Shown piece after piece: positions 31,618-37,059 of a stretch of DNA of 64,000 nt. The translations under genes and the position numbers were made by a program. The notes under the pieces are model-generated. The model worked only from the letters and a program-made list of their open reading frames with translations. It was not told where the DNA came from and ran no database searches. Within the stretch, counting starts at the first letter, position 1, and each line of letters starts with the position of its first letter. Source of the DNA: Zetaproteobacteria bacterium CG1_02_55_237 (GTDB lineage Bacteria; Pseudomonadota; Zetaproteobacteria; Mariprofundales; Mariprofundaceae); the NCBI GenBank assembly GCA_001871195.1, contig MNXA01000032.1, forward strand, positions 1 to 64,000, written 5' to 3'.

Positions 31618-32709
31618 CTATTTTCTTACATTGCTGCGCACGAACGGTGTCGTTGCGCGCAGGGCTGCCACGGCCTTGCCGCGAATCTCGACGGCCAGCT
31701 CACCCTGTGCCGCATGTTCCGGTTTCACATAGGCCAGCGCAACCCCGCCGGCCATCGGCGAATGCATGCCGGAGGTTACTTCACCACTCACCTCTCCATC
31801 CACCAGCACCGGATAATGTTCGCGCGGAATACCCCTTTCGCTGAGCTTCAGGGCAATTAGCACCTGCTTTGCACCCTCGGCCTTGCGCGCAACAACGGCA
31901 TCTCTGCCAAGGAAGTCGCCTTTGTCGAGTTTGGTAATCCACATCAGCTTCGCTTCGACCGGTGTTACCGCATCGGAAATCTCATGGCCGTACAGTGCAT
32001 AACCCATCTCGGTACGCAGCATATCGCGCGCGGCAAGACCAATCGGCACAGCCCCGGCAGCTAGCAAGGCGTTCCATATCACGCTTGCCGCCGCGTTGGG
32101 CAGATACAATTCAAAGCCATCCTCACCGGTATAGCCGGTGCGCGACACAATGGCCTGCGCATCCCCTAAACGGCATTCGGCAAAGCGGTAATAGCCGACA
32201 GCTTCCAGATCAACATTGCACAGAGGCTGCAAAAGCTTTTGTGCCGCAGCGCCTTGCAGGGCAAGCAGCGTGGTGTCGTCGGATTCATCAAGCACAGCCA
32301 CATCGAAGTCGGACGCACAGGTTTGCAGGTGTGCCACATCCTTGTGCCGGTTGGCGGCGTTGATGCACAGATAGTATTTGTTATCAGCAATGCGGTAGGT
32401 GGTGATGTCATCGATGAAGGTGCCGGCCTCATTCAGCAGGGCTGAATACTGCACCTGACCATCCACCAGTTTGCTTACATCGTTGCTTGTCACATATTGC
32501 AGGAAATCCAGCGCCTGTGGACCCGTGACCCTCACCTGCCCCATATGCGAAATATCGAACAGGCCGGCGGCGCCCTCGCGCACAGCGGTGTATTCCTTTA
32601 AAGCGCCGTCGGGATATTGCACCGGCATATCGAAACCGGCGAAGGGCACCATCTTGCCGCCCAGACGAATGTGTTCCGCATGCAGGGGTGTGTGTGCCAA
32701 TCCGGTCAT
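31618..32709 (-). CDS. gcvT: Glycine cleavage system T protein (aminomethyltransferase)
   Basis: A 363-residue folate enzyme that transfers the one-carbon unit from GcvH to tetrahydrofolate. Landmarks are [41 protein letters not shown] and the late EVTSGMHSP. Its ATG overlaps the folD stop by 4 nt. Confidence 0.96.
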
Positions 32710-33575
32710 AGCGTATCTCCAAGGTGTTCGCGGAATGCCTGCACGGTATTGGCCAGCAGCATGGTAATGGTCATCGGACCAACCCCACCCGGCACAGGCG
32801 TAATCCAGCCGGCGCGTTCCGCCGCCGCAGCATAGCCCACGTCGCCTGTCAGTGTGCCGTCATTCAATCGGTTGATGCCGACATCGATGACCACCGCGCC
32901 CGGTTTGATCCATTCGCCCTTCACCAGACCCGGCTTGCCGGCTGCGGCCACCACGATATCGGCGCGCTCGATATGCGCCTGCAAATCGCGGGTGAACTTA
33001 TGCGCCACGGTTACCGTGGCTCCGGCCAATAGCAGCTCAAGCGCCATCGGTCGGCCGACGATATTGGACGCGCCAACAATCACCACTTCCTGCCCGTGCA
33101 GATCCAGACCCGTTTCCTCAAGCAGCTTCATGCAGCCGTAGGGCGTGCAGGAACGCAGGCTCGGAATACGCGCCGCCAGTCGTCCGACATTGTAGGGATG
33201 AAAGCCATCGACATCCTTGCCCGGATCAATGGCCTCAATCACCGTCTCGGAATCGATCTGTGCCGGCAAGGGCATCTGCACGAGAATGCCATCCACCTTC
33301 GGGTTGGCGTTTAGCTCGGCAATCAGGCCGAGCAGATGCTGCTGCGTGGTGCTGGCCGGAAGGGTCTGGGAGAAGGCTGCAGATTCGATGCCGGTATCCA
33401 CGCAGGCCTTCTTTTTATTGCGCACGTAAACCTCGGAAGCGGCATCCTCACCGACCAGAATGACGGCCAGCCCGGGGGCGCGGCCATGCTTGCTGATCAA
33501 TGCGGCGACTTCGTCGGCCATCGTGCTGCGTATGCGTGCGGCGACGGCTTTGCCGTCCAGAATGCGTGCTGTCAT
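32706..33575 (-). CDS. folD: Bifunctional methylenetetrahydrofolate dehydrogenase/cyclohydrolase
   Basis: A 289-residue NADP-dependent enzyme that interconverts methylene-, methenyl- and formyl-tetrahydrofolate. Landmarks are [18 protein letters not shown] with the catalytic Lys, [19 protein letters not shown] and [14 protein letters not shown] chose the ATG at 33575 ([15 protein letters not shown]); the frame upstream reads into the palindromic element. As first gene of the gcv operon it takes methylene-THF made by GcvT towards formyl-THF for purines. Confidence 0.96.
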
Positions 33576-33581
33576 AGCATG

Positions 33582-33847
33582 GGGCCTGTTAAAACTAAAT
33601 TCGGGCGCAGCGACGAGGTCATTTTTTCGAGCCTGCAAGGCATGGTGAACGCGATGTGCTTGTTGCACATGAGTGAACCATAACGCAGCAGGACGGGAAA
33701 ATGGTCCGTCCCGAAGGGCTTCGCCCGAAATGGGGTCATGCAGCGTTGCTCGTCATTCATTTGGATTCACCAAACTTCACTCCTCGCGCCTTGCCTGGCT
33801 CCATTTCGGGCAGAAGCGCTTCACTCGAATTTAGTTTTAACAGACCC
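33582..33847. repeat. 266-bp palindromic element with 22-bp terminal inverted repeats
   Basis: GGGCCTGTTAAAACTAAATT-CG (33582-33603) is repeated inverted at 33826-33847 with one mismatch. Inside, GCCCGAAATGG and CCATTTCGGGC (about 33723-33734 and 33800-33811) form another inverted pair. The two halves also align imperfectly when one is inverted, for example GAGCCTGCAAGGC against GAGCCAGGCAAGGC. The element fills the gap between folD and the ROK kinase almost completely. A short open frame inside (33572-33760, minus) has no recognised product. It looks like a non-autonomous mobile or extragenic repeat; no target duplication was seen. Confidence 0.7.
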
Positions 33848-33877
33848 TAATTCTTGCAGGAAGGACCATCCTGCACA

Positions 33878-34789
33878 ATGATGTCCCGCATGCGAATCGG
33901 CATTGACCTTGGCGGCACAAAAACCGAACTGATTGCACTCGATGATACAGGCAGGGAATGCCTGCGCTTGCGCCGGGCAACACCCGCCGGCGATTACTCG
34001 GCAACCCTTTCATTGATGACTAACATGGTGGCCCAGGCGGAAAAAGAGATCGGCATGCGGGCCACGGTCGGTATCGGCACGCCAGGGGCGATTGCCGGAA
34101 ACAGCGGGCGCATGCAGAACTGCAACTCCACCTGTCTGAACGGCAAGCCGCTGCGTGAGGATATGGAGGCCTTGCTTGGCCGCGAGGTACGGCTGGCCAA
34201 TGATGCCAACTGCTTTGCTCTGTCGGAGGCCGTGGATGGAGCAGGCTGTGGAGCAGAGGTCGTGTTCGGTGTCATCCTTGGCACCGGTGTGGGTGCCGGC
34301 ATTGTGGTGCATGGCAAGCCGCTGAATGGTGCCAATGGCATCGGCGGTGAGTGGGGCCATAATCCGCTTCCTGCCCCTCGGGATGACGAACGTCCCGGAC
34401 CAATTTGCTACTGCGGGCGGCATGGTTGTGTGGAAACCTGGCTTTCAGGCCCTGCCATGGCCGCTGACCATAAGCTCTTGAACGGCGATACCTTGAGTGC
34501 CAAAGATATTGCCGGACTTGCTGCGGCAGGCGATGCCGACTGCGCCGCAACACTGGCTCGCTACACAGAACGACTGGCACGGGCACTGGCCGGGGTTATC
34601 AATATCCTCGATCCGAATGTGATTGTGCTCGGCGGCGGGCTATCACATATCGCCAGCCTGTATGCGCAGGTGCCGGACTTGTGGCGGCAGCATGTTTTCT
34701 CTGCCACCATCAACACACGCCTGCTGCCGCCTGCGCACGGTGATGCCTCCGGGGTGCGCGGTGCCGCTTGGTTATGGGAGAAGAAATGA
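33878..34789 (+). CDS. ROK-family sugar kinase
   Basis: A 303-residue kinase of the ROK family. The ATP-binding start is GIDLGGTKTE (8-17). The zinc signature CYCGRHGCVETWLSGP and the sugar/catalytic segment GGEWGHNPLP resemble E. coli fructokinase Mak and NagK; ANDANCFALSE contains the likely catalytic Asp. The substrate is a hexose by family but cannot be fixed. AGGAAGGA lies 12 nt upstream of the ATG at 33878, within a hairpin TGCAGGA/TCCTGCA (33855-33875) that could mask it. ATGs at 33881 and 33890 are alternatives. It overlaps the next gene by 4 nt. Confidence 0.85.
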   Translation: MMSRMRIGIDLGGTKTELIALDDTGRECLRLRRATPAGDYSATLSLMTNMVAQAEKEIGMRATVGIGTPGAIAGNSGRMQNCNSTCLNGKPLREDMEALLGREVRLANDANCFALSEAVDGAGCGAEVVFGVILGTGVGAGIVVHGKPLNGANGIGGEWGHNPLPAPRDDERPGPICYCGRHGCVETWLSGPAMAADHKLLNGDTLSAKDIAGLAAAGDADCAATLARYTERLARALAGVINILDPNVIVLGGGLSHIASLYAQVPDLWRQHVFSATINTRLLPPAHGDASGVRGAAWLWEKK

Positions 34790-36974: not shown

Positions 36975-37059
36975 GCCTGAGTGGTGAAATTGGTAGACAC
37001 GCCATCTTGAGGGGGTGGTGGGGTAACCCGTGCTGGTTCGAGTCCAGTCTCAGGCACCA
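36975..37059 (+). tRNA. tRNA-Leu (anticodon GAG)
   Basis: An 85-nt class II tRNA with encoded CCA. The acceptor stem is GCCTGAG/CTCAGGC, the anticodon stem CCATC/GGTGG, and the loop TTGAGGG gives anticodon GAG for CUC/CUU. A long variable arm GGGGTAACCC and the T-arm GGTTCGAGTCC are present. It lies 60 bp after secG and is probably cut from the tpiA-secG transcript; a GCAGGC/GCCTGC hairpin (36945-36965) lies in between. Confidence 0.97.

What the first reader, a model, noticed from the sequence alone, without database searches (positions are those of the whole stretch)
33582..33847. 266-bp palindromic element between folD and a ROK kinase
Terminal 22-bp inverted repeats (one mismatch) enclose further nested inverted segments, so the whole element could fold into a long imperfect hairpin. 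It codes for nothing recognisable and nearly fills the gap upstream of the folD-gcv operon. It may be a MITE-like or extragenic repeat family, or a structured RNA, and could carry or block the operon promoter.
Basis: seen in the sequence. Interest (0 to 1): 0.55.

Follow-up and report, generated by a model that had tools for sequence, protein, structure and literature searches.

The report
Widespread folded miniature jumping DNA
The 266-base palindrome beside folD is one copy of a tiny gene-less transposon family spread through many proteobacteria; its ends match different helper insertion sequences, while its folded two-hairpin core is kept by compensating mutations, which suggests the core itself does something.

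Summary
Observation confirmed: 33582-33847 is a 266-bp element with 22-bp terminal inverted repeats (1 mismatch) and nested hairpins. It is not single-copy: the genome holds four full copies plus mini and end-only remnants, and 31 of 78 genomes of the order carry it. It inserts at YTAR next to TA and is absent at folD/ROK in a sister species. Beyond the guess: the interior is two inverted copies of one hairpin (stem-CAAGGC-40 nt-AACGC-stem, tandem G.A pairs), about 265 bp overall, also in Halomonas, Pseudomonas, Azotobacter and unnamed proteobacteria. Across 27 such elements with different end 'dialects', 75 of 84 base pairs show double compensatory changes (94.9% paired versus 37-41% when slid). 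A model of the hairpin hits 73 of 396 Pseudomonadota genomes. None of nine helper-IS loci carries it; elsewhere it sits alone inside MITEs with GTAA..TTAC ends. Most likely: a non-autonomous IS5-type transposon whose hairpins fold as single strands and are selected for the element's own benefit. The binding partner is unknown; fixed-sense cis RNA and REP/RAYT explanations were tested and not supported.

The parts
33582..33603 (+). left terminal inverted repeat, GGGCCTGTTAAAACTAAATTCG (dialect AACACTAA-like)
   Evidence: same 17-nt end in 22 of 78 genomes of the order at <=1 mismatch
33826..33847 (-). right terminal inverted repeat, reverse complement GGGTCTGTTAAAACTAAATTCG
33579..33581 (.). 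left flank ATG: the expected TA is not present on this side of the window copy
   Evidence: 30 of 56 extracted copies have TA on both sides
33848..33849 (.). right flanking TA, target YTAR
33623..33701 (+). arm A: hairpin with CAAGGC ... AACGC motif, GA-sense on + strand
   Evidence: model R1 match E 7.0e-16; alignment A3
33710..33718 (+). central mini-hairpin CCC-GAA-GGG between the arms
   Evidence: both pairs of this helix kept in 27 of 27 elements of A4
33728..33806 (-). arm B: inverted paralogue of arm A, GA-sense on - strand
   Evidence: model R1 match E 7.5e-20; alignment A3
32706..33575 (-). folD (neighbour, not part of the element), start codon 7 bp from the element
   Evidence: translation from the MTARIL start
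33878..34789 (+). ROK-family kinase (neighbour, not part of the element); start inferred

Best explanation
The element is a non-autonomous miniature transposon (MITE). SHOWN: it has TIRs, it recurs with a fixed length, it inserts at YTAR next to TA, it is absent from the same site in a sister species, and full IS5-subfamily insertion sequences (NCBIfam transpos_IS5_3) carry the same ends. INFERRED: such a transposase binds the TIRs and moves the element in trans (about 0.93). SHOWN: the interior is not found in the IS; it is two inverted copies of one hairpin, [stem]CAAGGC-N40-AACGC[stem] with tandem G.A mismatches, joined by a CCC..GGG mini-hairpin, and its pairing and loop motifs persist across genera while the TIR dialect changes. 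INFERRED: the purine-rich (GA) strand of each arm folds as a single strand, so each strand of the element carries exactly one working hairpin. INFERRED: the fold is under selection for the element's own spread or persistence, most likely as a protein-binding single-strand DNA hairpin exposed during replication or transposition, with a widely conserved cellular partner (about 0.5), rather than as a regulator of folD or the ROK gene.
For: Copies: 4 full ones in the own genome (100, 83, 79, 78% identity), plus a 60-bp TIR-TIR copy and two solo ends. Order: 31 of 78 genomes at E<=1e-5; the TIR pattern in 22 of 78 with near-zero reversed-pattern controls. Of 56 extracted elements 33 are exactly 266 bp; TA flanks both sides in 30 of 56 (background TA 3.5%), Y at -3 in 50 of 56, R at +3 in 52 of 56. 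Empty site in G070: flanks match to within 4 bp with no insert. Helpers: IS with these TIR types and CTA|..|TAG flanks in Enterobacter (805 bp), P. aeruginosa and Polaromonas (824), Halomonas (857), Aeromonas (856) and P. avellanae (857); a related IS with TIR GGGCGTGTTCACACTA in same-genus G070, and an IS end GGGCCTGTTCACACTA|TAG in G040; the tested transposases have NF033580 (IS5 family) as best family. Fold: A2, 45 copies, 318 double-change cells vs 96 shuffled and 30-66 slid; A4, 27 elements, 75 of 84 pairs double-changed, 597 cells vs 172 shuffled, 94.9% paired vs 37-41% slid. Loop motif identity 0.96 vs 0.65 for arm stems and 0.60 for TIR dialect positions; G.A at five facing positions in 20-25 of 27; G-U exceeds A-C in each arm's own GA sense (22 vs 9; 26 vs 10), not in the TIR stem (6 vs 4). 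R1 finds no arm in 9 of 9 IS loci.
Against: No helper IS was found in the window's own genome by the one protein query used (3 of 78 genomes in the order, one of them strong). The window copy lacks TA on its left. Palindromes can be homogenised by template switching, which also makes compensatory changes without selection; the persistence of conserved unpaired loops argues against that as the sole cause but does not exclude it. In the Mariprofundaceae set, pairs shared by both strand folds show no G-U/A-C bias (arm A 19 vs 17, arm B 16 vs 14), although position-defined pairs do (47 vs 21, p=0.002; 39 vs 16, p=0.003). No binding partner was identified. DNA versus RNA is open: G.T and G.A pairs are tolerated in both. 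A4 was chosen for two-arm IS5-like architecture (15 of the 24 loci). The second arm's motif is less conserved (0.75).
Confidence: 0.75

Rival explanations
1. The element is a structured RNA acting in cis (terminator, stabiliser, RNase III site or riboswitch-like leader) on neighbouring genes, spread by transposition like NEMIS or ERIC.
For: Very stable fold, strong covariation, G-U excess in the GA sense of each arm; tandem G.A pairs also fit RNA.
Against: No Rfam family matches the window element or 20 related loci except an unrelated cobalamin riboswitch. No terminator-like site in the region. In 23 co-directional contexts of one-armed MITEs the hairpin is sense in 13 and antisense in 10. 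Arms are inverted, so either transcript carries one GA-sense arm only.
Confidence: 0.2
2. The hairpins are REP/BIME-type units mobilised by a tyrosine (HUH) transposase of the RAYT kind, and the TIRs are incidental.
For: Inverted pairs of hairpins resemble BIMEs; hairpins occur outside the two-arm element, singly and in tandem; 15 of 18 arm-rich genomes carry Y1_Tnp.
Against: Three arm-rich genomes (G043, G124, G172) have no Y1_Tnp match, while 8 of 10 genomes chosen as arm-less have one. Of 20 fetched Y1_Tnp neighbourhoods 2 hold an arm, both about 2 kb or more from the gene, in genomes with dozens of arms. TIRs and TA flanks are precise.
Confidence: 0.07
3. The pairing is kept only by mutational palindrome correction (template switching between arms) and the interior has no function.
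For: TIR-stem changes are strand-symmetric; palindromes are prone to this.
Against: The facing mismatches (CAAGGC/AACGC and tandem G.A) are among the best conserved positions (0.96 identity), where correction should erase them; the same hairpin occurs in MITEs with unrelated ends.
Confidence: 0.2
4. The element is a simple internal-deletion derivative of one IS5-family insertion sequence.
For: Shared TIRs with full-length IS.
Against: None of nine IS loci carries an arm; one interior is found with at least ten TIR dialects.
Confidence: 0.05

Closest known systems
IS5-subfamily insertion sequences (NCBIfam NF033580 transpos_IS5_3; Pfam DUF4096 + DDE_Tnp_1)
   Same: same TIR tip GGG(C/T)CTGTT and, per dialect, the following 8-10 nt; CTA|..|TAG flanks
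   Different: they are 805-857 bp, code for a transposase and carry no arm
Bacterial MITEs (Chunjie, Nezha, NEMIS, MITEPsy1; PMC10969869, PMC3733652 and PMC3189936, passages read)
   Same: under 300 bp, TIRs, no coding capacity, intergenic, presumed moved in trans; MITEPsy1 also uses CTAG/YTAA targets
   Different: the interior here is a conserved two-hairpin fold shared across genera and across end dialects; no such sharing was described in the passages read
REP/BIME/REPIN palindromes with RAYT
   Same: inverted pairs of short hairpins, intergenic, non-coding
   Different: no conserved GTAG or CGTC tag in the arm alignments, hairpins about 80 nt, bounded by DDE-type TIRs with TA flanks, no link to Y1_Tnp
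P. fluorescens repeat families R0, R2, R178, R200 (PMC2718517, passages read)
   Same: MITE-like intergenic repeats in Pseudomonas; R200 is listed at 320 bp, 47 copies in SBW25
   Different: no sequences in the passages read; not tested whether R200 is a member of this family

Membership tests
MITE | terminal inverted repeats, under about 500 bp, no coding capacity | tested here: met
MITE | multiple dispersed copies with target-site signature | tested here: met
   (window copy itself lacks TA on the left)
MITE | ends shared with an autonomous element | tested here: met
MITE | mobilised in trans by that transposase | not testable with these tools
   presence/absence at folD/ROK is indirect
IS5-derived internal deletion | interior derived from the IS | tested here: not met
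   no arm in 9 of 9 IS loci
REP/BIME with RAYT | GTAG/CGTC-tagged short palindrome | tested here: not met
   alignments A3, A4 show no such conserved tag
REP/BIME with RAYT | association with a Y1 tyrosine transposase | tested here: not met
Known structured RNA (Rfam) | match to a curated covariance model | tested here: not met
Structured RNA acting in cis | fixed sense relative to the regulated gene | tested here: not met
   13 vs 10 of 23 co-directional contexts, one-armed MITEs of two genomes
Integron attC site | R and L boxes, integrase association | not tested
   no attC model or integrase search was run

The most novel reading that the evidence does not exclude
A single folded hairpin module (CAAGGC-N40-AACGC with tandem G.A pairs) is a selfish structural cargo that has been combined with the ends of several insertion-sequence lineages (many IS5 dialects, and GTAA..TTAC ends with 8-bp repeats) across Proteobacteria. 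Its transposase specificity is exchangeable while the fold is the heritable core. The fold is recognised by a conserved cellular single-strand binding or processing factor, which would make it a new functional class of non-autonomous mobile element.
Probability: 0.4. Interest if true: 0.85.

Novelty: new variant of a known kind. Interest (0 to 1): 0.62.

Why it matters
MITE interiors are usually treated as junk between two transposase sites. Here the interior outlives the ends: 27 elements with different end dialects share length, fold and loop motifs, with 75 of 84 pairs showing compensatory change, and the hairpin is detectable in 54 of 236 sampled genera. If the fold matters for mobility or tolerance, it offers a direct test of what, besides TIRs, a non-autonomous element needs. 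It would also explain a class of stable intergenic hairpins that could be mistaken for regulatory RNAs.

Tried and rejected
Rfam scan of the window region and of 20 loci: nothing for the element. IS630 transposase (PF13358) as helper: a match in 2 of 11 genomes, 1 over cut-off, so dropped. Phage records: no match to the L179 or Halomonas element. L179 element in plasmids: no match. Strict paired-TIR pattern in the phylum sample: 9 of 398 genomes, all Mariprofundaceae, which under-reported the family because the TIR dialect varies. Promoter/terminator scan: nothing. RAYT link: not supported. Fixed-sense cis RNA: not supported. The plasmid search with the GTAACTACTCAG end found no helper IS, only two Segatella records with 17-nt matches. 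The plasmid search with the GGGCGTGTTGATGTTTG end gave arm-bearing loci in Pseudoalteromonas. Literature: TIR string 0 papers; MITE + Zetaproteobacteria 0; Mariprofundus + transposable + inverted repeat 0; structure and IS5/MITE searches gave reviews and other families only. Papers were seen as listings except passages of PMC2718517, PMC10969869, PMC3189936, PMC4465626, PMC3733652. I therefore say only that these searches found no description. That GTAA..TTAC ends with 8-bp repeats are IS66-type, and that REP tags are GTAG/CGTC (also read), are general knowledge; the IS66 label comes from no call.

Rows dropped: A2 used 45 of 56 elements (11 left out for lengths 251-308), and one element (L172) was turned by hand before alignment. 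A3 used 34 arms: 13 of 17 arm A and 13 of 15 arm B representatives plus 8 from L183, L201, L202, L179. A4 left out 9 of the 24 loci (other lengths, one arm, or no clear TIR). Model R1 was trained on arms from these sets, so matches to them are by construction; phylum hits in other genera are not. In some searches only 60 and 11 candidates per genome were scored, so copy counts are lower bounds.

Full report
WHAT IS THERE. The window stretch 33582-33847 is a 266-bp element, GGGCCTGTTAAAACTAAATTCG ... CGAATTTAGTTTTAACAGACCC. The 22-bp ends with one mismatch exceed anything in 60 shuffles (longest 13), and the fold is far more stable than shuffled sequence (z -9.6 and -7.8 for the two strands). 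It lies between divergent folD (start 33575, minus strand) and a ROK kinase (start about 33878). The best named relative by one neighbouring gene is a Mariprofundaceae genome (66% protein identity), so the host is probably a zetaproteobacterium; this is an inference from one gene.

IT IS A REPEAT FAMILY AND IT MOVES. The own genome holds full copies at C42 (this one), C22, C31 and C18 (100, 83, 79, 78%), a 60-bp copy reduced to its two ends at C38:31071-31130, and solo ends at C10:30675 and C28:3199. In the order, 31 of 78 genomes match at E<=1e-5 and 22 of 78 hold the end GGGCCTGTTAACACTAA at one mismatch or less, 49 times in G069, with near-zero matches for the reversed control pattern. From fetched regions 56 paired elements were extracted: 33 are exactly 266 bp, TA flanks both sides in 30 of 56 where background TA is 3.5%, and the target is YTAR. 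In sister species G070 the folD and ROK flanks align to within 4 bp of each other with no insert. The window copy has TA only on its right side.

THE HELPER. Searching plasmid records with 33-34-nt ends found IS5-family genes at some of the matches. Six of eight fetched loci gave a precise IS with CTA|TIR...TIR|TAG: Enterobacter 805 bp, P. aeruginosa and Polaromonas 824, Halomonas 857, two Aeromonas 856. A further dialect (GGGTCTGTTCCCGTTTCG) belongs to an 857-bp IS on a P. avellanae plasmid and equals the ends of elements in G405 and G421 (with one mismatch at one end in G405). The single-ORF transposases tested belong to NCBIfam transpos_IS5_3; the split-frame ORFs match the same model below its whole-protein cut-off. 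In the order, the one protein query used found a strong relative in same-genus G070 (814-bp IS, TIR GGGCGTGTTCACACTA) and a contig-edge fragment in G040 whose end GGGCCTGTTCACACTA equals ends found elsewhere in that genome. None was found in the window's own genome, so the helper may be lost or of another dialect.

THE INTERIOR IS THE SURPRISE. RNAalifold on 45 copies gives a TIR stem, arm A, a tiny central hairpin and arm B. Of 75 pairs 48 show changes on both sides; 318 double-change cells against 96 shuffled and 30-66 slid; 95.4% paired against 37-44% slid. Arms A and B are inverted paralogues: [13-nt stem]CAAGGC-N40-AACGC[15-nt stem], aligned almost without gaps. The same layout is in Halomonas, P. 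aeruginosa and Azotobacter plasmids and in two virus-collection contigs. A covariance model of one arm (R1) matches 50 of 78 genomes of the order, 14 of 18 genera, and 73 of 396 genomes of a phylum sample, 54 of 236 genera, although at most 11 candidates per genome were scored. Of the 24 contexts read in that sample, 15 are two-arm elements of about 264-268 bp with IS5-like tips and widely different dialects, such as GGGTCTGTTCCCGTTTCG, GGGCCTGTCATCAG, GGGCGTGCCATCG, GGGGCTGTTCTCAATG, GGGTCTGCCGCCAATTG and TTAGAGCGTTTTTCG. Twenty-seven such elements from this and earlier sets aligned with few gaps: 84 pairs, 75 with double changes, 597 cells against 172 shuffled and 99-148 slid, 94.9% paired against 37-41% slid.

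WHICH STRAND FOLDS. Facing positions in the arms are tandem G.A rather than Watson-Crick: in A4 GA or AG in 20-25 of 27 at five positions, with the same pattern in arm B and partly in arm A of the Mariprofundaceae set. Such pairs are stable only on the purine strand (general knowledge); that strand is + in one arm and - in the other, so each strand of the element has one such hairpin. Among pairs predicted on both strands, G-U exceeds A-C in each arm's own GA sense (22 vs 9; 26 vs 10), not in the TIR stem (6 vs 4). In the Mariprofundaceae set this test was negative on shared pairs (19/17, 16/14) and positive on position-defined pairs (47/21, 39/16). First-arm loop motifs are 0.96 identical, second-arm motifs 0.75, arm stems 0.65, TIR dialect 0.60. 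Conserved mismatches beside covarying stems are hard to explain by palindrome correction alone.

THE HAIRPIN IS INDEPENDENT OF THE ENDS. No arm occurs in nine IS loci. In G001, G003 and G061 single arms sit inside shorter repeats with GTAACTAYTCAG ... CTGARTAGTTAC ends, at least two with 8-bp flanking repeats (L238, L258), and in G007 inside GTAAGTAG ... CTACTTAC ends. By recalled knowledge GTAA..TTAC with 8-bp repeats is IS66-like. Arms also occur in tandem without evident TIRs (L080, L287).

MECHANISM. Movement by an IS5-subfamily transposase in trans is inferred from shared ends and targets. A cis RNA of fixed sense is disfavoured: 13 sense and 10 antisense among 23 co-directional contexts of 40 one-armed loci (genes approximated by long ORFs), and no Rfam match. 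A RAYT partner is disfavoured. The remaining best reading is a single-strand hairpin, probably DNA exposed in replication or transposition, bound by an unidentified conserved factor to the element's benefit. DNA versus RNA, and the partner, are not shown.

NOVELTY. As an object it is a MITE. As a kind it is a variant not described in the searches made: a conserved two-hairpin interior shared across many end dialects and genera. Possible identity with named Pseudomonas repeats such as R200 (passages of PMC2718517) was not tested.

Noticed in passing
G000 C10:30675, C28:3199 (L034, L035); L114:9080; L115:2900; L116:3772: Solo TIR ends of 17-29 bp with no interior, several apparently at gene borders; at L114:9080 the end runs straight into what looks like an ATG start.
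   Followed up: partly
L117, L118, L124, L125, L127, L128, L132 (G069): Element lengths in G069 step by about 15 bp (251, 266, 281, 296); the extra bases lie in one or both sides of the arm B stem.
   Followed up: no
L033:972-1031 (G000 C38:31071-31130): A 60-bp copy made of two TIRs and a few bases, the smallest form seen in this genome.
   Followed up: no
L080:1400-1800 (G076) and L287 (G367): Tandem single arms without clear IS5-like ends, about one unit per 100 bp.
   Followed up: no
L240-L265 (G007), L238-L261 (G001), L241-L263 (G061): High-copy one-armed MITEs (54-72 arm matches per genome) with GTAA..TTAC ends in at least some, a separate mobile family carrying the same hairpin.
   Followed up: partly
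L288:1501 region and L289:1501 region: Arms inside repeats with further end types (TAACCTCAACTCTGGATAAG; GTGTCTC..GAGACAC).
   Followed up: no
window 36975-37059 (+): tRNA-Leu (gag) between secG and glyQ; the overlapping 128-aa ORF on the other strand is probably spurious.
   Followed up: no
   Followed up: no
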